This document shows positions 2,647 to 30,912 of a stretch of 44,360 nucleotides of DNA, one piece after another. Position numbers and translations under genes: made by a program. Source of the DNA: Brachybacterium nesterenkovii (GTDB taxonomy: Bacteria; Actinomycetota; Actinomycetes; Actinomycetales; Dermabacteraceae); assembly GCF_900163655.1 (NCBI RefSeq), contig NZ_FWFG01000094.1, positions 1-44,360 on the forward strand, read 5' to 3'. The stretch's first letter is position 1; each line of letters starts with the position of its first letter. A model generated the notes under the pieces. It was not told the origin of the DNA and searched no databases. It saw nothing but the letters and a program-made list of their open reading frames with translations.

Positions 2647-3914
2647 CTAGCGCGCGTCGGCACTGGCCCGCACGAGCGCGGCCACGGCGCGCGCGGCCTG
2701 ACGCGCGGCGCGCGAGGCCCCGATCGTGGAGGCCGAGGGCCCGTAGCCGACGAGCTGGATGCGCTCATCGACCGCGGCAGTCGTCGCGCCCTGGACGTTC
2801 CCGGGAACCCGGCGCAGCGCGATCCCGCCGCGCGGCGAGCGCAGGCGCAGCGGTGCGAGGTGCTGCGTCGCGGGGCGGAAGCCGGTGGCCCAGAGGATCA
2901 CGTCAACGCGCTCGACGCGGCCGTCGGCCCAGCGCGCTCCCTCGGGCACGAGGCGCTCGAACATCGGCAGCGGATGGTCGTAGGCGCCGAGCGCCCGCGC
3001 CGCCTGCTCCTGTTCGCGCAGCACGAGGCCGGTCGCGGCGACGACGCTGCGGGGCGCCTCGCCCAGCACCGCCCGCCGCTCCACCTCGGTCACGGCGGCG
3101 AGGCCCTCGATCTCACCGCCGTCGCGCCACTGCGGCGGCCGCCGCGTGACCCACAGCGTGTCGGCGACCGGCGCGATCTCGCCGAGGAACTGGACGGCGC
3201 TCGCGCCGCCGCCGACCACCATCACGCGGCGGCCGCGCAGGGCATCGGCGCCGGGGTAGGAAGCCGTGTGGAACTGCTCGCCGGTGAAGTCCGCGGCCCC
3301 GGGGACCGCGGGCACGAAGGGCCGCGTCCAGGTGCCGGTGGCGCTGATGAGGGTGCGGGCGAGCAGGGAGCGGGTGCGCGCACCTGCGCCGTCGGCGGCG
3401 TCGGGAGCGCCGACAGCGCCAGCAGCTCCTGCAGCTCCTGCAGCTCCTGCAGCTCCTGCAGCATCCTCGCTCTGCATCCCCTCAGCCCGCACGCCCTCGC
3501 CCCGATCCGACGCGATGGCTCGGTGGTCGAGGACGGTCACGCGCAGGAGCGCCCGACCATCCGTGCCCCGCGCTCCATCGGGTCGTCTTCGACGCGCAGC
3601 ACCCGGACGGGCCTGCGCACGGGCAGACCGTGCCGGGCCTCGTACGCGCCGAAGTACCCGGGGATCACGAGGTTCGCGCGCTCGGAGCTGCGCGGCGGCG
3701 CGGGCTCGCCCGGGAGATCGGCGACGCCGTGGACGTCGCGCATCGTCAGCGAGTCCCAGCGGTGGCGCCACGCTCCGCCCGGGCCGTCCTCCGCGTCGAG
3801 CACGACGTGGTCGATGCCCAGGGCGCGCAGGTGGAAGCTCGCGGCCAATCCCGCCTGGCCCGCGCCCACGACGATCGCGTCGAGCACCGGCGAGTCGGGC
3901 CCGGGCGCTGTCAC
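2647..3914 (-). pseudogene. Flavin-containing monooxygenase-like oxidoreductase, frameshifted
   Basis: A FAD/NAD(P)-dependent monooxygenase of the CzcO/FMO type split over two frames. The first part (3914 to about 3580) starts with GTG and carries the FAD-binding GAGQAG and the typical GGAWRHRWDSL. The second part, in the -1 frame, carries ISATGTW, the NADPH-binding VVGGGASAVQF and the C-terminal LWATGFRP. The first frame ends at a stop at 3537, inside what should be continuous protein. One extra C in the CCC run at 3580-3582 would restore VEDDP-DGARGTDGRALLRV, so a one-base deletion there is the simplest cause, though any site from 3540 to 3582 could serve. The GTG start overlaps the glutaminase stop by 4 nt, so the gene was coupled to it. 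An in-frame 9-bp repeat lies at 3424-3462. A sequencing error would make this an intact gene. Confidence 0.8.
3424..3462. repeat. 9-bp tandem repeat (AGCTCCTGC), four units
   Basis: Four perfect 9-bp units plus a partial one inside the frameshifted monooxygenase, encoding repeated Ala-Gly-Ala. The unit is three codons, so changes in copy number keep the frame. It forms a low-complexity loop between the FAD-binding part and the ISATG motif. Confidence 0.85.
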
Positions 3915-19401: not shown

Positions 19402-20421
19402 TCAGTGCGAGGCGCCTCGGTGGTGGACCTCGTCGGTGATCTCGCGATCCTGCGTCTTGGGCCCGAGCACCAGGGAGGCGACGGTCGCGATCAGCATCGA
19501 GCCGATGATCACGCCGAGGGACACGAACGTGTTGACCTCGGGGATCTTCTCGAGCACGTGGAAGCCGGGGATCCACTCCAGCGGGGCCTCGTGGATCGCG
19601 TGGATGATCAGCTTGACGCCGATGAACGCGAGGATCGCCGCGATGCCGTAGTGGAGGTAGACGAGGCGGTCGACGAGGCCGCCCAGCAGGAAGTACAGCT
19701 GGCGCAGGCCCATCAGGGCGAACAGGTTCGCGGTGAACACGATGAACGGGTTCTGGGTGATGCCGAAGATCGCGGGGATCGAGTCGATCGCGAACATGAC
19801 GTCGGTCAGGCCGATCACCACGAACACCATGAGCATCGGCGTGAAGACCTTCTTGCCGTCCACGACGGTGCGCAGCTTGTTGCCGTCGTACTCGCTGTGG
19901 ACGGGCAGCACGCGGGCGACGGTGCGCTGGATGAAGCTGTCGCCGTCACCCTCCTCGTCGTCCTCGCCCTTGGCCTGGGTCCACGCGGTGTACAGCAGGA
20001 AGATGCCGAAGATGTAGAAGATCCACGACAGGTGCTCGATGGCGACGGCGCCGATCAGGATGAAGATCGCACGGGCTACGAGCGCGATGATGATGCCCAC
20101 CATCAGCACTTCCTGCTGGTACTTCCTGGGCACCGCGAAGCGGCTCATGATCAGGATGAACACAAACAGGTTGTCGACACTGAGCGAGTACTCCGTGAGC
20201 CAGCCCGTGAGGAACTCGAGCGCGACGTGGTGGGTGTCCCCGACGAAGAACAGGATCCCCGCGAAGATCAGGGCGAGGGAGACGTAGAAGCCCACCCAGG
20301 CCACGCATTCCTTCACCGAGGGGACGTGCGGTCGCTTCAGGACGATCAGCAGGTCGGCGACGATGATCAGGACGAGCACCACCAGGGAGGCGATCTCGAA
20401 GGTCAGGGACAGTTCACCCAT
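19402..20421 (-). CDS. TerC/Alx family integral membrane protein, probable Mn2+ exporter
   Basis: A 339-residue TerC-family protein with about nine membrane helices. Acidic membrane motifs are intact: SLSVDNLFVFILIMSRF in the first half and GLTDVMFAIDSIPAIFG in the second. Both carry the conserved Asp residues in TerC. Family members (Alx, MeeF/YceF, YkoY) export manganese; others are linked to tellurite resistance or metal loading of secreted enzymes. Its neighbours are a MntR-type regulator and MntH, supporting manganese efflux here. A GAGAGG Shine-Dalgarno sequence lies 7 nt before the ATG. The promoter region has a 10-bp inverted repeat around a possible -10. The protein also has an acidic cytoplasmic loop (GEDDEEGDGD), perhaps binding metal. 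Confidence 0.9.
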   Translation of the reverse strand: MGELSLTFEIASLVVLVLIIVADLLIVLKRPHVPSVKECVAWVGFYVSLALIFAGILFFVGDTHHVALEFLTGWLTEYSLSVDNLFVFILIMSRFAVPRKYQQEVLMVGIIIALVARAIFILIGAVAIEHLSWIFYIFGIFLLYTAWTQAKGEDDEEGDGDSFIQRTVARVLPVHSEYDGNKLRTVVDGKKVFTPMLMVFVVIGLTDVMFAIDSIPAIFGITQNPFIVFTANLFALMGLRQLYFLLGGLVDRLVYLHYGIAAILAFIGVKLIIHAIHEAPLEWIPGFHVLEKIPEVNTFVSLGVIIGSMLIATVASLVLGPKTQDREITDEVHHRGASH

Positions 20422-20517: not shown

Positions 20518-20642
20518 ATGTGGACGGACCCTGGACGGGGCAGCGTGCTCTGCGAACGGACGCATCCGCGGTCCGCGCTCCGCATGGCCCGTCGCCGAAC
20601 TCGGTACGCCCCGTCGCCGCGCGCAGCACGCCCCGCCGCAGG

Positions 20643-20670
20643 GCTCAGCACACCCCACCGCTGGGCTGAG
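20643..20670 (-). terminator. Possible terminator of the mntH-mntR operon
   Basis: GCTCAGC and GCTGAGC form a 7-bp stem with a 14-nt loop, about 20 nt beyond the stop of the MntR-methyltransferase gene. Weak without a U-tract. Confidence 0.35.
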
Positions 20671-20688
20671 CTCGCCTCGTGGTCGCGA

Positions 20689-22296
20689 TCAGGCCCGGCG
20701 CAGCAGGATGACCCCGTCCTCCAGCTCCGCCTCCTGGCCGTCGGGGCCCTGGGCGATGCGGGTGCGGGTCTCGGCGAGCACGGTCCGCCACTGACCCGCG
20801 GGCAGGCCCAGCGCCGCGATCTCCTCGGCGGGAGGCAGGAGGCCCATGCTGTCGTGGTGCGTGTGCTCGTCGTGGCCGGCGGCCTCATCGTTCTGCGTGT
20901 GACCGTCGTGCTGCGCGTGATCGTCGTGCTGCGCGTGGCGCGACCACGGCGGCGGAGCGGCGTGGGAGACGACCAGCAGGTGCCCGCCCGGAGCCAGCAC
21001 GCGGGCCGCCTGGCGCAGGATCGCGGTGCGCCCGAGGGCGGCGCGCGAGTGCAGGAACGATGACGTGACCAGGTCGAAGGGACCCTCGAGGGCGCCTCCG
21101 GCTCCGCCTTCTCCCGCCGCCCACGGCTCGAGGTCCTGGGCGATGAAGCGCACGCGGAGGCTTCCATCGGTCCGCGCGGCCTCAACGGCGCGAGCAGCCT
21201 CAGCAGCCTGTGCGGTCTCAGCGGCGCGGGCGGCGTCAGCAGCGCGGGCGACGGCGGTCGCGGAGATATCCGTCGCGATCACGTCCCAGCCGCGGGAGGC
21301 GAGCCAGATCGCGTCGGCACCCTCGCCGCAGCCCAGGTCCAGGGCGCGCCCCGCTTCCACGGGGCCGGTGCCGTCGACGCCATCGGCCTCGAGCCGCTCG
21401 ACGACGGCCGCGGTCGTCGCGTTCACGCTGCCCGACCACACGGGGGCGTCGCGGTAGCGCTCCTCCCAGTGCTCGCGAGGGCTGCCGATCGATTCCTCGA
21501 CCGCGTGGTCGGCACGGTCGCGCTCGGCGACGGGGCCAGGCTCTGCGTCGGACGCCGCAACGGGAACCGCATCGGCCGCCGCAAGGGGAACCGCGTCGGA
21601 CCCTGGCTCGGCCACCGCGCCGCCATCTCCCCGACCGACCGGGCGCACGCGCACAGCAGCGGCCACGTCGTCCGGGACCTCGGTCTCCGTCGCATCGGCC
21701 ACGACCACCGTGAGGGGCTCGCACCCGCGCACCTCGCCCCGGGCTCCCGGGACCAGGCCCAGGGCGCGGGCGGCGACGAGCGCACCAGGGTCCGCGTCGG
21801 ATACGCGCACCACCTCGACCGGCCCCGCCTCCGTCAGGTCGCGCAGCAGCAGCGTCCCCTCGGGCAGGGCGGTCGTGCCGTCGGCCGCGGGGATCGGGTC
21901 CCCGTGGGGATCCGCGGTCGGGTGCCCGAGGGCCTTATCGATGCGCTCGATCAGGCCCGGCGAGGCGGCGTGCTCGAGCCGCTCGGCCTCGTCGTGGACC
22001 TCGTCCCAGCCGTAGCCGAGGGCCGTGACCAGGTACGTCTCGAGGAGGCGGTGGCGGCGGACCATCGCAACCGCGCAGTCACGGCCCATCGGCGTGAGCG
22101 TCACGGGCCGATACGGCGTGTACTCGAGCAGGCCCTGGCCGGCGAGGCGCCGCACCGTCTCGGTGACCGTCGCGGGGGCCGCGCCCATGCGGGCGGCGAG
22201 ATCGCCGGTGGTCAGGAGCGCATCGCCCCATTCGGTGCGGCTCCAGATCGCCTTGAGGTAGTCCTGCGCGACGGTGGTCAGGGCGTCGGGGTCCAC
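20689..22296 (-). CDS. MntR-type (DtxR family) repressor fused to a SAM methyltransferase
   Basis: One frame of 535 codons joining two proteins. Residues 1-65 are a winged helix (MGAAPATVTETVRRLAGQGL); 66-138 are the DtxR dimerisation and metal domain; about 150-225 form a FeoA/SH3-like domain. Metal ligands follow the Mn type: Asp in AQDYLKAIW where iron sensors have Met, HRLLE, and VHDEAERLEH with Glu where DtxR/IdeR has Cys. After a 40-residue Ala/Pro linker, residues 269-535 are a class I methyltransferase of TehB-like build: WEERYRDAPVWSGSVN, SAM motif LDLGCGEGADAIWLASRG, then ATDIS. Residues 452-482 carry nine His among Asp/Glu, encoded by an 18-bp DNA repeat. GTG start with AGGAGG 4 nt upstream. 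It follows mntH by 42 bp. The substrate is unknown. Confidence 0.88.
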   Translation of the reverse strand: MDPDALTTVAQDYLKAIWSRTEWGDALLTTGDLAARMGAAPATVTETVRRLAGQGLLEYTPYRPVTLTPMGRDCAVAMVRRHRLLETYLVTALGYGWDEVHDEAERLEHAASPGLIERIDKALGHPTADPHGDPIPAADGTTALPEGTLLLRDLTEAGPVEVVRVSDADPGALVAARALGLVPGARGEVRGCEPLTVVVADATETEVPDDVAAAVRVRPVGRGDGGAVAEPGSDAVPLAAADAVPVAASDAEPGPVAERDRADHAVEESIGSPREHWEERYRDAPVWSGSVNATTAAVVERLEADGVDGTGPVEAGRALDLGCGEGADAIWLASRGWDVIATDISATAVARAADAARAAETAQAAEAARAVEAARTDGSLRVRFIAQDLEPWAAGEGGAGGALEGPFDLVTSSFLHSRAALGRTAILRQAARVLAPGGHLLVVSHAAPPPWSRHAQHDDHAQHDGHTQNDEAAGHDEHTHHDSMGLLPPAEEIAALGLPAGQWRTVLAETRTRIAQGPDGQEAELEDGVILLRRA

Positions 22297-22338
22297 GGTT
22301 CCTCCTGGCGGCGGCGCCCGGGCGGGCCGCCGGGACGA

Positions 22339-23637
22339 TCATGCCTCGCCGAGGATCGTGAGCACCACCAGCGCCGCGTTGAGGACGATGATCGCGCCGG
22401 CCGCCGCCGCGGCGAGGACGGTCACGAGGCGGGTGTCGGCGAACTCCCCCATCACGGCCCGGCTGCGCGTGAGAGCCACGAGCGGCACCAGCGCGCAGGG
22501 GATGCCCAGGCTGAGGGCCACCTGGCTGAGCACGAGCGCGGCGGTCGGGTCGATACCGGCGCCGAGCACGATCAGCGCGGGCACGAGCGTGATGACCCGG
22601 CGGGCGAGCAGCGGGACGCGGATGCCCAGGAGGTCGCCCATGATCTCCGCCCCGGCGTGCGCACCGACGGAGGTGGAGGCGAGACCGGAGACGAGCAGGC
22701 CGATGCCGAACAGCACGCCCACCACCGGTCCGGAGGCGGCGGCGATCGCGGCGTGCGCGCCCTCGATCGTGTCGGTGCCGGGGACGCCCGGGAGGGCCTC
22801 GGCGGCCAGGACCAGCATCGCGATGTTCACGGTCCCCGCGAGGGCGAGGGAGAGCAGCACGTCCCAGCGGGAGGCGCGCACCAGCAGACGGGTGGGGATC
22901 GCATCCTCGAGCTCGCGCCGCCTGTCGCGGGCGAGCCCCGAGTGCAGGTAGATCGCGTGCGGCATGACGGTCGCGCCGAGCATCGAGGCGGCCAGGACCA
23001 CGGTGCCGGGGCCCTCGAGCCGCGGGACGAGGCCGCCGGCGAGCGCGCCCGGATCCGGCGGGTCGACGACGAGCCCGGCGAGGAAGCCGATGGTGATAAT
23101 CGCCAGCATCCCCACCACGATCCGCTCGAAGGGGCGGGCGCCGAAGCGGTTGCGCGTGGCCAGCAGCACGATGGCGACGATGCCGACGATGATCCCGCCG
23201 TGCACGAGCGGCAGGCCGAACAGGATGTGCAGGGCCAGCGCCCCGCCGATGACCTCGGCGAGGTCGGTGGCGGCGGCGACGAGCTCGGCCTGCGCCCAGA
23301 ACAGGAGGCGCCCGCGGCGGCCGAGCCGCTCGGCCACGTGCTGGGCGAGGCTGCGCCCGGTGACCAGGCCGAGCTTGGCCGAGAGGTGCTGGACCAGCAC
23401 GGCCATCGCGCTCGCGAGGACGAGCACCCACAGCAGGAGGTAGCCGTGCTGCGCGCCGGCGGTGAGGTTCGCGGCGACGTTGCCGGGGTCGACGTACGCG
23501 ATGGCCGCGACGAAGGCGGGGCCGAGCAGGCGCAGCGGGGAGCGACGGTCCGGCGACGGGGCAGGAGCATCGGCCGGCGCGTCCACGGATGCGGTGCCGG
23601 AGGCGAGGAGTCCGGTTTTTAGGCTTTCCGAAAACAT
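22339..23637 (-). CDS. mntH: Nramp family Mn2+/H+ symporter
   Basis: A proton-coupled divalent metal importer of the Nramp family, 432 residues and about 11 membrane helices. The metal-binding DPGN is in [17 protein letters not shown] (first helix), and the second half-site [11 protein letters not shown] (helix 6) is intact. Both are characteristic of Mn2+ transport in bacterial MntH. I set the start at the ATG at 23637, not 23661, because TACCCT (23645-23650) stands 7 nt upstream as a leaderless -10 and the upstream ATG lies within an operator-like palindrome. The next gene downstream is the MntR fusion. Two palindromes cover the -10 and the start codon, so repression by Mn-loaded MntR is expected. 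The gene diverges from amylosucrase. Confidence 0.92.
23615..23635 (-). promoter_or_regulatory. MntR-box-like operator 2, overlapping the mntH start
   Basis: On the minus strand: GTTTTCGG, AAAG, then CCTAAAAAC, a near-palindrome of 21 bp. It shares GTTTTCGG and the CC(T)nAAAC half with operator 1 and covers the first codons of mntH. Confidence 0.55.
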
Positions 23638-23639
23638 GT

Positions 23640-23659
23640 GTTTGAGGGTACCCGAAAAC
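23640..23659 (-). promoter_or_regulatory. MntR-box-like operator 1 over the mntH -10
   Basis: On the minus strand: GTTTTCGGGTACCCTCAAAC, a palindrome around GGGTACCC. The -10 hexamer TACCCT (23645-23650) lies inside, so a bound repressor would block RNA polymerase. The AT-rich ends contrast with the GC-rich setting. Confidence 0.6.
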
Positions 23660-25891: not shown

Positions 25892-28800
25892 ATGTCGTTC
25901 TTCGCACGCCTGCTCGCCGCGCTCCGCGCCCTCATCGCCCCCCTCGGGCGCGCCGCGGGCACGACAGCCCGCCCCCTCCTCCGCGCCGGCTCCGCCACGG
26001 GCCATGCCCTCGGCGACGGCGCCCGTCTGCTCGGCCGCGGCGCCCGCGCCGTCGCCCGCGACATCGGCCAGGTGATCCCCGGCGAGTGGAAGCAGCGCAT
26101 CGCCCTGCTGTTCGCCACCGGTCTCGCCGTCGTCCCGATCATCTACTCGGGCAACATGACCTGGGCGTTCAACGACCCCACCGGCCACCTGAACCAGATC
26201 ACCGCCGCCGTCGTCGACGCCGACACCGGCGCCGACTCCAGCTCCCCCGACGGGACCACCGAGCACATCGACGTCGGCCGCGAGTTCACCGACGAGCTCC
26301 TCGACATGGACAAGAACACCGTCTACCGCTTCGTCGAGACCGACCAGGCCACCGCCGACGCGGGCCTGGCCGACGGCACCTACGGCGCGGTCATCGAGGT
26401 CCCCGCCGATTTCTCCGCGAACATCGCCACCCTCGGCGCCGACGACCCGATGCAGGCCGCCCCTGCCATGCTCACCGTCCGCACCAACGACACCATCAAC
26501 TACGTGGGCGGCAATTTCACGAAGTCCGTCGGCACCGCCCTGCGCCAGAGCCTCGAGGCCAACGTCCTGGAACAGTACCTCGACAAGATCTACATCGGCT
26601 TCACGACCATGCACGACAAGCTCGGCGAGGCCGCCGACGGCGCGACCAGGCTCCACGACGGCAGCGTCCAGCTGGCCGACGGCACCGGGCAGCTCGTCGA
26701 CGGCTCCGCGGACCTGGCCGACGGCGCCGGCACCCTCGCCGACGGCACCGGGGACCTCGCCGACGGCGCGCACCGCCTGTCCGACGGCAGCTACGACCTC
26801 GTGATCGGCCTGGGCCAGATCTCCACGGGCGCCGACCAGCTCTCCGCCGGGGCCGACCGCCTGTCCACGGGCGCGACGACGCTCGCGACCGGACTGGACA
26901 CCCTGAGCTCGAAGAGCCCCGAGCTGGTCGACGGCGCCGACCGTCTCGCCGGCGGCAGCGCGCAGCTGGAGGACGGCGCGCAGACCCTCGCCGACGGCAG
27001 CCGCCAGGTGGCCGACGGCACCCAGCGGCTCGACGACGCCGCGACGGGCCTGCAGGGCCGGGCCCGGGAGCTGGGCATCGACCAGCAGAGCGTGGACCGC
27101 ACCACCGGCGACCTGCAGACCGCCGTCGACGACCTCGCGCAGACCGCGACCGACGTGAACACGGCCCTCGCGGGCACCGGCATCGCGCCGCAGATGCAGC
27201 AGAACGCCCAGGACCTGTCCGGGCGGATCGACACCGCCGCCTCCGATGCGAAGACCCTGCAGGACGCGGTCGCGGCCCGCCAGGGCGATGCGAGCACCGT
27301 GCAGGACAGCGCGACGACGATCTCCGACCAGGTGGACACGATCGCGGACGGCGTGAAGACCGCGAACGACGCCGCCCCGCAGCTGGCCAAACACGCGAGC
27401 GCCCTCGACGACGCGACCGTCGAATACACCTCGACCGTCGACGAGCTGGCCGCCCTGTGCGCCAAGGAGCCGTCCACCGGCACGACCACCACGACGTCAG
27501 CGGGCGCCTCGGACGGCGGCGGTGCCAAGACGACCGTGTCGTCGACGCCCAGCGAGGTGTGCGACCGCCTGCAGGCGCTCGCGGGCGACTCCGCGTCCGT
27601 GCGCTCCGACGACGGGACCGTCTCCTCCGCGTCCCTGCGCTCCGACGCCGGGACCGTCTCCCAGGAGGCCGCCGCCAACCGCGACGCCCTCGCGGCCGTG
27701 ACCGACGGCGCCCAGCAGGTCCGCGACTCCGCGACCGCCATGAAGGACTCCGCCGACCGCCTCGCGACCTTCCTCAGCGGCACCGACGGCTCCTCGAGCC
27801 TCACCGCGCTCGCCCAGGACGTGCAGGACCTCAGCACCGATGCGAAGACCCTCGCCGGGGACTCGAAGACCGTCTCCGACGGCGTAACCCGGGCGCGCGA
27901 CATCCTGCAGACGGCCGCGACCGACCCCGCGGCCGCGCAGCAGAAGATCGACGACCTCCACAGCCAGGCGACCACCGCTGTCCAGGCCCTGCCGGACGCC
28001 TACGACCGCGCCGACCAGGCCGTCCAGGACATCCACCGCCTGAACTCGGGCGCCCAGCAGGTGGCCGACGGCAACGAGCGCCTCGCTGGCGCGACCGGAC
28101 AGCTGGCCGACGGCGCCTCGACGCTCGACGACGGGGTGCGCCGCTACACCGGCGGCGTCGACCAGGCCGCCGGTGGCGCGGGCCAGCTGGCCGATGGCGC
28201 CCAGGAGCTCTCGACCGGGGCCGACCGCCTGGCCTCCGGTGTGGACACCGCCGAGGACGGCGCGCAGCAGCTCAATGCGGGCGCCGGGCAGCTCGCCGAC
28301 GGCGCCGACCGCATCGCCGCCGGGGCGACCCAGCTGGCCGACGGCGCCACCCGTCTCCACGACGGCGCCGTGCAGGTCGATGATGGTGCGCAGCAGCTGG
28401 CCGACGGCAGCAAGGAGCTCGCCGACGGCCTCGGCGACGCCGTTGACCAGGTCCCCTCCTACACCGACACCGAGCGCGAGCACCTCGCCTCGACCGCCTC
28501 GGATCCCGTGGGCCTGGACTTCCACCGCGACAACGGGCTGGACCGCTTCGGCGAGGGGCTCGCGCCGCTGTTCCTGGCGATCAGCCTCTGGGTGGGCGGC
28601 ATGGCGATCTTCCTGATGATGTCGCCGTTCTCCGTGAGCGCGGCCCGGGCCGGGCGCAACGCCGGCTCGCTGCTGCTGGGCGGGCTGCTGCCCGCGCAGG
28701 CCCTCGGGCTCGTCCAGACCGTCGTGGCCGTGGCGATCCTGCACTTCTGGGTGGGCATCACCGCGGTGCACATGACGCAGTTCGTGCTCATGGCGTGCCT

Positions 28801-29155
28801 GACCAGCGTGGTGTTCGTGGCGCTGAACCACGGCTTCGGGGCGATGTTCGGGCCGGTGGGCAAGTTCGTGGCGCTCTTGCTCATCGCCCTGCAGGTCTCG
28901 GGCGCGGGCGGCACCTACCCGGTGCAGACGCTCCCCCGGTTCTTCCGGGTGATCCACGAGTACCTGCCGATGACGCACGCGGTCGATGCGTTCCGCGGCA
29001 CCATCGGCGGCGGCTGGGTGGATCCGAGCGGGGACATCGCCTGGCTGCTGGGGTGGCTGGCCCTGGGCCTGGTCCTCGGCTTCGGCGGAGCGCTCAAGAC
29101 GCGGCGCCGCACGCGGCGCGGTTGGGAGGGGCACGTGGCACCGACGGCGTCGTGA
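25892..29155 (+). CDS. YhgE/Pip family membrane protein with DG heptad repeats
   Basis: A 1087-residue protein of the YhgE/Pip (phage infection protein) family, related to ABC-2 type permeases and RND-like exporters of small scale. After an Ala/Arg-rich cytoplasmic start, one helix lies at about residues 68-90 (RIALLFATGLAVVPIIYSGN). A large outside domain follows to about 890. Then come five helices (LFLAISLWVGGMAIFLMM and on). The outside part carries two blocks of xDGxxxL heptads (about 250-385 and 719-850), known in this family as xxxLxxG repeats. Between them lie coiled-coil-like stretches and a Thr/Ser/Gly-rich segment flanked by two Cys (LCAKEP, EVCDRL), maybe a disulfide. Related proteins serve as phage receptors or in type VII secretion; the cargo here is unknown. 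The start is set by the promoter. Confidence 0.88.
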   Translation: MSFFARLLAALRALIAPLGRAAGTTARPLLRAGSATGHALGDGARLLGRGARAVARDIGQVIPGEWKQRIALLFATGLAVVPIIYSGNMTWAFNDPTGHLNQITAAVVDADTGADSSSPDGTTEHIDVGREFTDELLDMDKNTVYRFVETDQATADAGLADGTYGAVIEVPADFSANIATLGADDPMQAAPAMLTVRTNDTINYVGGNFTKSVGTALRQSLEANVLEQYLDKIYIGFTTMHDKLGEAADGATRLHDGSVQLADGTGQLVDGSADLADGAGTLADGTGDLADGAHRLSDGSYDLVIGLGQISTGADQLSAGADRLSTGATTLATGLDTLSSKSPELVDGADRLAGGSAQLEDGAQTLADGSRQVADGTQRLDDAATGLQGRARELGIDQQSVDRTTGDLQTAVDDLAQTATDVNTALAGTGIAPQMQQNAQDLSGRIDTAASDAKTLQDAVAARQGDASTVQDSATTISDQVDTIADGVKTANDAAPQLAKHASALDDATVEYTSTVDELAALCAKEPSTGTTTTTSAGASDGGGAKTTVSSTPSEVCDRLQALAGDSASVRSDDGTVSSASLRSDAGTVSQEAAANRDALAAVTDGAQQVRDSATAMKDSADRLATFLSGTDGSSSLTALAQDVQDLSTDAKTLAGDSKTVSDGVTRARDILQTAATDPAAAQQKIDDLHSQATTAVQALPDAYDRADQAVQDIHRLNSGAQQVADGNERLAGATGQLADGASTLDDGVRRYTGGVDQAAGGAGQLADGAQELSTGADRLASGVDTAEDGAQQLNAGAGQLADGADRIAAGATQLADGATRLHDGAVQVDDGAQQLADGSKELADGLGDAVDQVPSYTDTEREHLASTASDPVGLDFHRDNGLDRFGEGLAPLFLAISLWVGGMAIFLMMSPFSVSAARAGRNAGSLLLGGLLPAQALGLVQTVVAVAILHFWVGITAVHMTQFVLMACLTSVVFVALNHGFGAMFGPVGKFVALLLIALQVSGAGGTYPVQTLPRFFRVIHEYLPMTHAVDAFRGTIGGGWVDPSGDIAWLLGWLALGLVLGFGGALKTRRRTRRGWEGHVAPTAS

Positions 29156-30379: not shown

Positions 30380-30480
30380 CGGCGCCGCGGGGGTCGCGGG
30401 AAGGGTCGGCCACGGGGCGAGCGCGGGTCGGGCGCGGCAGGCGGCCCCCATCCGAGGGGGCCTTTCGGCGCCGCCCCCAC

Positions 30481-30912
30481 TGGGCCCCTTCTCGCCCGAC
30501 CCCACCCAGTGCCGCCGCTCGCGCCCTTATCGCACGTGCCCGCTGGCCCCACGGGGCCCCTTCTCGCCCGACCTCGCCCAGTGCCGCCGCTCGCGCCCTT
30601 ATCGCACGTGCCCGCTGGCCCCACTGGGCCCCTTCTCGTCCGACCTCGCCCAGTGCCGCCGCTCGCGCCCTTATCGCACGTGCCCGCTGGCCCCACTGGG
30701 CCCCTTCTCGCCCGACCTCACCCAGTGCCGCCGCTCGCGCCCTTATCGCACGTGCCCGCTGGCCCCACTGGGCCCCTTCTCGCCCGACCTCGCCCAGTGC
30801 CGCCGCTCGCGCCCTTATCGCACGTGCCCGCTGGCCCCACTGGGCCCCTTCTCGTCCGACCTCGCCCAGTGCCGCCGCGCACGCCCTCATCGCCTGTGCC
30901 TGCTGGCCTCTA
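30481..30912. repeat. 72-bp tandem repeat, six units
   Basis: Units begin at 30481, 30553, 30625, 30697, 30769 and 30841. The first five are nearly identical; the last decays after 40 bp. Each carries a GGGCCCC block, GCCCAGTGCCGCCGC and CCCTTATCGCACGTGCCCGC. There are no variable spacers, so this is a minisatellite and not a CRISPR array. Confidence 0.93.

What the first reader, a model, noticed from the sequence alone, without database searches (positions are those of the whole stretch)
20689..22296. MntR-type manganese repressor fused to a His-rich SAM methyltransferase
A single uninterrupted frame joins a full DtxR/MntR protein (winged helix, dimer domain, SH3-like domain) to a class I methyltransferase with an intact LDLGCGEG motif. 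The sensor ligands fit Mn and not Fe: Asp in AQDYLKAIW and Glu at the IdeR Cys102 place in VHDEAERLEH. The methyltransferase carries a stretch with nine His (residues 452-482) grown from an 18-bp DNA repeat. Known MntR proteins are about 140-230 residues and have no enzyme part. A metal-sensing repressor that also methylates something, perhaps in a metal-dependent way, would be a new kind of regulator. TerC next door recalls tellurite resistance, where TehB methyltransferases act.
Basis: partly seen in the sequence, partly recalled or inferred. Interest (0 to 1): 0.78.

Follow-up and report, generated by a model that had tools for sequence, protein, structure and literature searches.

The report
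Manganese repressor fused to a methyltransferase
In one Brachybacterium lineage the gene for a manganese-sensing repressor has run together with a neighbouring gene for a small-molecule methyltransferase, giving one real two-part protein that is unusual but most likely a recent joining of two ordinary parts.

Summary
The fusion is real. On the minus strand, 22296-20689 is one open frame of 535 codons: a full MntR of the M. tuberculosis type (residues 1-221, Mn-type ligands), a repeat-containing linker (222-270), and a class I SAM methyltransferase (271-535) that keeps all 27 columns invariant in 65 other sequences. Two further protein clusters (96% and 91% identical) show the same fusion, with in-frame indels only. 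It is rare: 1 of 38 held Brachybacterium genomes, and 1 of 248 genomes of the order at a strict threshold. In the congener G030 the two genes stand side by side, separated by a stop codon and in different frames, so the fusion probably arose by joining neighbours. Two palindromes at the mntH start are the only sites of their kind (up to 1 mismatch) in the 3.02-Mb genome, pointing to an autoregulated mntH-mntR::MT operon. Relatives of the methyltransferase are free-standing or fused to HlmI/DepH-like oxidoreductases, and its best solved fold match comes from echinomycin disulfide-to-thioacetal conversion; a thiol S-methyltransferase is likelier than TehB. The His-rich tract is an extreme of a loop that bears His across the family. 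Most likely the fusion couples expression, not catalysis, to Mn. Metal-gated methylation is not excluded; nothing here shows it.

The parts
20689..22296 (-). fused gene mntR::MT, 535 aa, GTG start, AGGAGG at 22301-22306
   Evidence: P0002 and P0003 share the fusion
21634..22296 (-). MntR module, residues 1-221: winged helix, dimer domain, FeoA/SH3-like domain; D12, H82, E86, H101, E105, E108, H109 at the DtxR-family metal sites
   Evidence: free-standing MntR of five of seven compared congeners ends at this point, G030 runs on somewhat, G021 aligns poorly there
21487..21633 (-). linker, residues 222-270, low predicted confidence, containing a 24-bp repeat
   Evidence: one repeat unit fewer in P0003, in frame
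21548..21601 (.). 24-bp tandem repeat, 2.2 copies, in the linker
21613..21615 (-). possible internal GTG start (codon 228), with GGGGAG at 21627-21632, 11 bases upstream
   Evidence: weak, not tested
20692..21486 (-). class I SAM methyltransferase module, residues 271-535
   Evidence: 27 of 27 columns invariant in 65 other sequences kept; pLDDT 85.8, pTM 0.85
21319..21342 (-). SAM motif I, LDLGCGEG, residues 319-326
21176..21250 (.). 18-bp tandem repeat coding an Ala-rich insert in the methyltransferase, absent from the sister P0122
20851..20943 (-). His-rich loop, residues 452-482, nine His
   Evidence: low-confidence loop in the model
22339..23637 (-). mntH, NRAMP Mn transporter; start proposed at the ATG 2 bases after the first box, 8 codons inside the longest ORF (23661)
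   Evidence: 42 bp from mntR
23640..23659 (.). palindromic operator 1, exact match to the pattern
23616..23635 (.). palindromic operator 2, one mismatch, overlapping the proposed start of mntH
19402..20421 (-). TerC/Alx-family membrane protein downstream; conserved neighbour, not part of the fusion

Best explanation
The gene makes one polypeptide of two working modules. The MntR half binds Mn(II), dimerises and represses its own mntH-mntR::MT operon at two palindromes that cover the mntH start. The methyltransferase half keeps the SAM-dependent small-molecule activity of its free-standing relatives, most likely methylation of a thiol, and hangs on a flexible linker. The fusion arose when the stop codon and frame change between neighbouring mntR and MT genes, still present in G030, were lost. 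Its effect is that methyltransferase and repressor are made in equal amounts and rise together when Mn is scarce; no allosteric coupling is needed. Shown: frame, domains, ligand residues, kept conserved columns, lineage distribution, unfused neighbour state in G030, unique palindromes. Inferred: Mn and DNA binding, operon transcription, methyltransferase activity and its thiol substrate, absence of allostery.
For: MntR half: 5zr4 'Metal-dependent transcriptional regulator' at 179 bits with the same ligand region. Operators: only two sites (up to 1 mismatch) in 3.02 Mb, none for the reversed control pattern; six of six congener mntH genes examined have a TTTAAGGTACGTTAAA-like box upstream. Methyltransferase half: 27 of 27 columns that are invariant in the 65 other sequences are kept, and 31 of 33 that are at least 90% conserved, one of the two misses being the start Met; well-predicted fold; best PDB folds 4nec (echinomycin disulfide-to-thioacetal enzyme), then TehB and Rv0560c; 51 of the 58 listed proteins that hold the methyltransferase are fused to an oxidoreductase whose best PDB kin include 4ntd 'Thioredoxin reductase', DepH and GliT. 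Origin: G030 has mntR, TAG, a short gap, then ATG of MT in another frame, within the same gene order TerC-MT-mntR-mntH-amylosucrase. G000 has one MntR of this type and one such MT, both in this gene; its other match is a 34% IdeR-like one. P0001, P0002 and P0003 differ only by substitutions and in-frame indels.
Against: No biochemistry. The MT tree does not place the fused clade next to the G030 MT: that fork is open. P0122, the nearest MT (71%), is listed as 257 aa with its own Met on a 903-base contig, so the sister lineage may be unfused. None of 13 congener MT upstream regions tested has an Mn box, so Mn control of the MT would be new to this lineage. The boxes differ from those of congeners (5 mismatches to their consensus). 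Neither promoter nor terminator was found by the simple scan. The MntR half scores below the NCBIfam MntR equivalog cut-off (177 against 350). Between P0001 and P0002 the methyltransferase half differs more than the MntR half (11 of 265 against 3 of 220).
Confidence: 0.6

Rival explanations
1. Allosteric regulator-enzyme: Mn binding or DNA binding by MntR gates methylation, or SAM/SAH bound by the methyltransferase fold tunes repression.
For: Both halves look intact; a fusion makes such coupling possible. A related precedent: TTC0109 of Thermus was picked for homology to ArsR-family regulators and has a C-terminal methyltransferase domain (PMC8649762, passages).
Against: Repeat-built linker with pLDDT mostly under 50 in the full model, though the MntR half was also poorly modelled there; fusion seen in one lineage only; both halves are encoded as separate proteins elsewhere.
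Confidence: 0.12
2. Two products: internal initiation near codon 228, or proteolysis in the linker, releases a free methyltransferase, so the gene acts as an overlapped operon.
For: In-frame GTG at codon 228 with GGGGAG 11 bases upstream; codon fit falls there.
Against: Spacing longer than usual; no in-frame ATG or TTG between codons 201 and 333; P0002 and P0003 keep the linker in frame.
Confidence: 0.15
3. Neutral or decaying fusion: the methyltransferase is a passenger enlarged by repeat slippage and no longer active.
For: Three repeat-built stretches in one gene; one lineage only; between P0001 and P0002 the methyltransferase half differs more than the MntR half (11 of 265 against 3 of 220).
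Against: 27 of 27 invariant columns kept; between P0001 and P0003 the halves differ about equally (9 of 259 against 9 of 220 aligned residues); it is the only copy of this family found in the genome.
Confidence: 0.13

Closest known systems
MntR of Mycobacterium tuberculosis (Rv2788), PDB 5zr4/5zr6
   Same: three-domain MntR with the same metal-ligand stretch, 179 bits over residues 8-189. That 5zr4 is Rv2788 is recalled; its crystal paper I saw only as a reference cited in PMC11416365
   Different: 226-residue chain with no methyltransferase
Brachybacterium G030 mntR and MT neighbours
   Same: same two proteins (64% and 51%) in the same order between mntH and TerC
   Different: two genes in different frames, a TAG and a short gap between them
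actinobacterial FAD oxidoreductase/SAM methyltransferase fusions (e.g. P0101)
   Same: same methyltransferase module at the C-terminus; 51 of 120 listed proteins
   Different: N-terminal partner resembles 4ntd, DepH and GliT (4ntd as HlmI is recalled), not a repressor
4nec, SAM methyltransferase of echinomycin biosynthesis (Ecm18, name recalled)
   Same: best Foldseek match of the methyltransferase model, E 4e-12; 48 bits to P0101
   Different: 18-19% identity, TM 0.57-0.59 by query length; substrate not shown to be shared
TehB tellurite methyltransferase
   Same: class I fold, high in the Foldseek list
   Different: 12-15% identity; fails NCBIfam TehB cut-offs
ArsR-related/methyltransferase protein of Thermus thermophilus (TTC0109, PMC8649762, passages read)
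   Same: metalloregulator-like part plus C-terminal SAM methyltransferase
   Different: ArsR, not DtxR/MntR; an arsenite methyltransferase according to that paper's title

Membership tests
DtxR/MntR, Mn-type | winged-helix and dimerisation domains | tested here: met
   PF01325 59 bits and PF02742 103 bits, above cut-offs
DtxR/MntR, Mn-type | Asp at IdeR Met10 and Glu at IdeR Cys102, with the conserved His and Glu | tested here: met
   D12, H82, E105, E108, H109; ligands of MntR as stated in PMC6860424 (passages)
DtxR/MntR, Mn-type | Glu11 of B. subtilis MntR (second metal of the binuclear site) | tested here: not met
   K15 at that place; 5zr4 also has Lys, and PMC6860424 gives Glu11 as conserved in the B. 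subtilis and E. coli proteins, so this does not exclude the actinobacterial type
DtxR/MntR, Mn-type | NCBIfam MntR equivalog score NF047407 | tested here: not met
   177 bits against 350; it is called MntR-type here by domains and ligands, not by this model
DtxR/MntR, Mn-type | palindromic operator at an Mn transporter gene | tested here: met
   two sites at mntH, the only ones in the genome with up to 1 mismatch; binding itself not tested
DtxR/MntR, Mn-type | Mn-dependent DNA binding | not testable with these tools
   needs protein
class I SAM methyltransferase | Rossmann fold with GxGxG motif I | tested here: met
   LDLGCGEG; model pLDDT 85.8
TehB | NCBIfam equivalog cut-off | tested here: not met
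   37.6, 31.7 and 30.1 bits against 218, 219.5 and 303
ArsM arsenite methyltransferase | three conserved Cys | tested here: not met
   one Cys in residues 271-535; criterion as described in PMC8649762 (passages), which also proposes a one-Cys exception
thiol S-methyltransferase | methylates a thiol | not testable with these tools
   inferred from fold kin and fusion partner

The most novel reading that the evidence does not exclude
A self-contained response to metal-binding dithiols: a toxic dithiol strips Mn from the cell, Mn-free MntR lets go of its operon, and the cell makes both the Mn importer MntH and, on the repressor itself, a thiol S-methyltransferase that disarms the chelator; as Mn returns, the fused protein shuts itself off. 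The methyltransferase family, fused elsewhere to HlmI-like oxidoreductases, would then also be a candidate for the unknown enzyme that S-methylates reduced holomycin.
Probability: 0.1. Interest if true: 0.75.

Novelty: new variant of a known kind. Interest (0 to 1): 0.42.

Why it matters
It is a clear case of a metalloregulator gaining an enzyme domain, with the parts still standing as separate neighbours in a congener, so the step can be tested. It also draws attention to a large actinobacterial methyltransferase family (2591 hits) whose substrate I found no report of in the few searches made. PMC10500201 (passages) states that the enzyme for bis-thiomethylation of reduced holomycin remains to be discovered; fusions of this family to HlmI-like oxidoreductases make it a candidate worth an assay.

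Tried and rejected
Tellurite resistance: rejected as first choice (TehB models far below cut-off; TerC has similar neighbours in congeners without mntR there). ArsM: one Cys only. Frameshift or assembly error: rejected, three sequence clusters share the frame. DNA or RNA methylation: only weak hits of 19-22 bits to rRNA- or tRNA-type enzymes. Mn boxes upstream of MT genes in 13 congener loci (12 apart from mntR, plus G030): none; 20 to 100 of 100 letter shuffles did as well as the real sequence, whereas at six mntH control regions (0-3 mismatches) none of 100 shuffles did. MT beside mntR elsewhere: of 80 mntR loci fetched, one (L035) has an MT about 5.5 kb away, not adjacent; the flanks reach at most 8 kb and some loci are shorter. 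The full-length AlphaFold model was poor in the MntR half, perhaps because MT-only rows crowd the alignment; I draw nothing about domain packing from it. Literature: searches for an MntR-methyltransferase fusion listed one paper, a review on M. tuberculosis drugs, and none; a search for SahR and ArsR-methyltransferase proteins led to TTC0109, and the passages seen in PMC4239095 did not bear on fusions. Selection at the DNA level could not be measured, as DNA of P0002 and P0003 was not within reach. My first count of invariant columns included the window itself; one search repeats it without the window, with the same 27 of 27.

Full report
What is there. The window is contig C119 of a 3.02-Mb genome. 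Its genus is most likely Brachybacterium: the same-genus genome G035 has a contig of 999,987 bases, the length of NZ_QFKX01000002.1 of B. endophyticum, with the matching hit. On the minus strand, 22296-20689 is one 535-codon frame. Pfam finds, in order, Fe_dep_repress, Fe_dep_repr_C, FeoA and a methyltransferase domain. Upstream, 42 bp away, is mntH (NRAMP); downstream is a TerC/Alx-family gene.

MntR half. The best solved relative by sequence is 5zr4, 179 bits over residues 8-189. Against IdeR, D12 replaces Met10 and E105 replaces Cys102; H82, E86, H101, E108 and H109 are kept. This is the ligand pattern of MntR (PMC6860424, passages). The Glu11 of B. subtilis MntR is Lys here, as in 5zr4. 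The recognition-helix region differs from all seven congeners compared at several places, and the boxes differ as well.

Operators. Two palindromes, 23616-23635 and 23640-23659, match GTTTNNGGNNNNCCNNAAAC with 1 and 0 mismatches; 2 of 100 shuffles of the window also reach two matches at up to 2 mismatches. The pattern was drawn from this site, so the test that counts is the whole genome: no other place in 3.02 Mb matches with up to 1 mismatch, and the reversed control gives none. In six of six congener mntH genes examined a TTTAAGGTACGTTAAA-like box lies upstream of the called start or beside it (0-3 mismatches). The placement suggests that mntH starts at 23637, after the first box.

Methyltransferase half. 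The window keeps 27 of the 27 columns that are invariant in the other 65 aligned sequences and 31 of the 33 others that are at least 90% conserved; the misses are the start Met and one Ala-to-Ser. By that measure it lies in the lower part of the set, 12 of 66 rows scoring lower. The AlphaFold model has pLDDT 85.8 and pTM 0.85, with low confidence in the Ala-rich insert and the His loop. Foldseek ranks first the methyltransferase 4nec of echinomycin disulfide-to-thioacetal conversion, with TehB, Rv0560c, UbiG and halide methyltransferases next; identities in the 50 listed are 12-22%, so this does not fix the substrate. In one search, 120 of 185 hits were listed; of these 62 hold only MntR, 51 hold this methyltransferase plus an oxidoreductase, 5 hold it without either, and 2 hold MntR and methyltransferase (the search admits only proteins 0.55-1.75 times the query's length and scored only the 7994 best candidates). 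The 120 proteins listed of 2591 hits, searched with the methyltransferase alone, hold neither partner. The oxidoreductase of P0101 matches 4ntd best and DepH and GliT among the next; 4ntd as HlmI is recalled. HlmI, DepH and GliT are dithiol oxidases (PMC3826145, passages), and S-methylation of such dithiols is described as a backup protection (PMC10500201, passages). From this I infer a thiol substrate; it is an inference, not a test.

His-rich loop. Of 240 proteins held, 161 had the anchor motif (79 without it were dropped; one search finds 62 MntR-only proteins in the set); 155 of the 161 have at least one His in the loop, 139 at least two and 22 at least five. The window, with nine, is second to P0129 with ten. 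The tract is thus an extreme of a family trait, lying on an 18-bp repeat. The sister P0122 has a short form.

How rare and how old. In the 38 held Brachybacterium genomes, by my count of the table, 24 have an MntR match at E up to 1e-48, 23 an MT match at E up to 1e-18, and 14 both. Of these 14, one is fused (G000), one has the genes adjacent (G030), and in 12 they lie on different contigs or at least 6.7 kb apart (nearest G021). In 248 genomes of the order only G000 shows a match spanning both halves (threshold 1e-60, five candidates scored per genome, 8 of 248 with any match, so a distant fusion could be missed). In G030 the mntR gene ends with TAG; a short gap later the MT starts with ATG in another frame, in the same gene order as the window; G030 also has a second MT-like stretch elsewhere. 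In G031 the MT lies in the same slot between TerC and the amylosucrase gene without mntRH, and in G009 near by. So either the slot predates mntRH beside it, or these two lost them. The tree groups the three fused sequences with P0122 (100/100) but leaves their link to the G030 MT open, which weakens, without contradicting, a simple descent from a G030-like pair.

Is it one product. P0001, P0002 and P0003 differ by indels of 6 and 8 residues, all in frame and matching the 18- and 24-bp repeat units. Because the units are multiples of three, this is only modest evidence for selection on the frame. Codon fit drops in the linker. An internal GTG at codon 228 with a GGGGAG 11 bases ahead leaves a second, shorter product possible. 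Per half, P0001 and P0003 differ at 9 of 220 (MntR) and 9 of 259 (MT) aligned residues; P0001 and P0002 at 3 of 220 and 11 of 265, so the methyltransferase may evolve somewhat faster.

Verdict. A true gene fusion, seen in one lineage, that puts a probable thiol methyltransferase under Mn control by attaching it to the repressor. The parts are known; the two searches that I made for the combination found no paper on it. The claim of Mn-gated methylation is open. The boldest reading, a chelator-detoxifying circuit, rests on three indirect lines: the operon with mntH, the oxidoreductase partners elsewhere, and metal chelation by dithiols (PMC10500201 and PMC12288471, passages). The passages I saw in those papers concern mainly zinc, which tells against a specific link to Mn.

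Noticed in passing
30475-30908: 72-bp tandem repeat, 6.0 copies, 95% matches, between the PPK2 gene and the next gene.
   Followed up: partly
2647-3315 and 3537-3887, minus strand: Two neighbouring pieces match FMO-like and NAD_binding_8 in Pfam and look like parts of one broken monooxygenase gene, or two short genes.
   Followed up: partly
25892-29155, plus strand: 1087-aa YhgE/Pip-like (name recalled) membrane protein with many repeated short units (LADGA-like) and an ABC2 membrane domain at the end.
   Followed up: no
P0047, P0105, P0042, P0151: The same methyltransferase module is also joined to a DapA-like (PF00701) domain (P0047), an AHSA1/START domain (P0105), or an N-terminal stretch that looks membrane-spanning in P0042 (P0151 has the same layout), so it is a repeated fusion partner.
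   Followed up: partly
P0025: MntR with GNAT acetyltransferase domains (Pfam list; MntR part at residues 213-402): another possible enzyme-MntR fusion, not checked for gene-calling error.
   Followed up: no
20606-20671: 22-bp repeats in the gap between TerC and the fused gene's stop codon.
   Followed up: no
L109 8448-9101 (G011): Free MT gene, as called by my script, starts on the last base of the gene before it, which looks like uracil phosphoribosyltransferase (recalled from its sequence); possible coupled expression.
   Followed up: no
G030:C1:2923206-2923772: A second MT-like stretch in G030, in two pieces of one 217-aa frame, apart from the mntR-adjacent copy.
   Followed up: no
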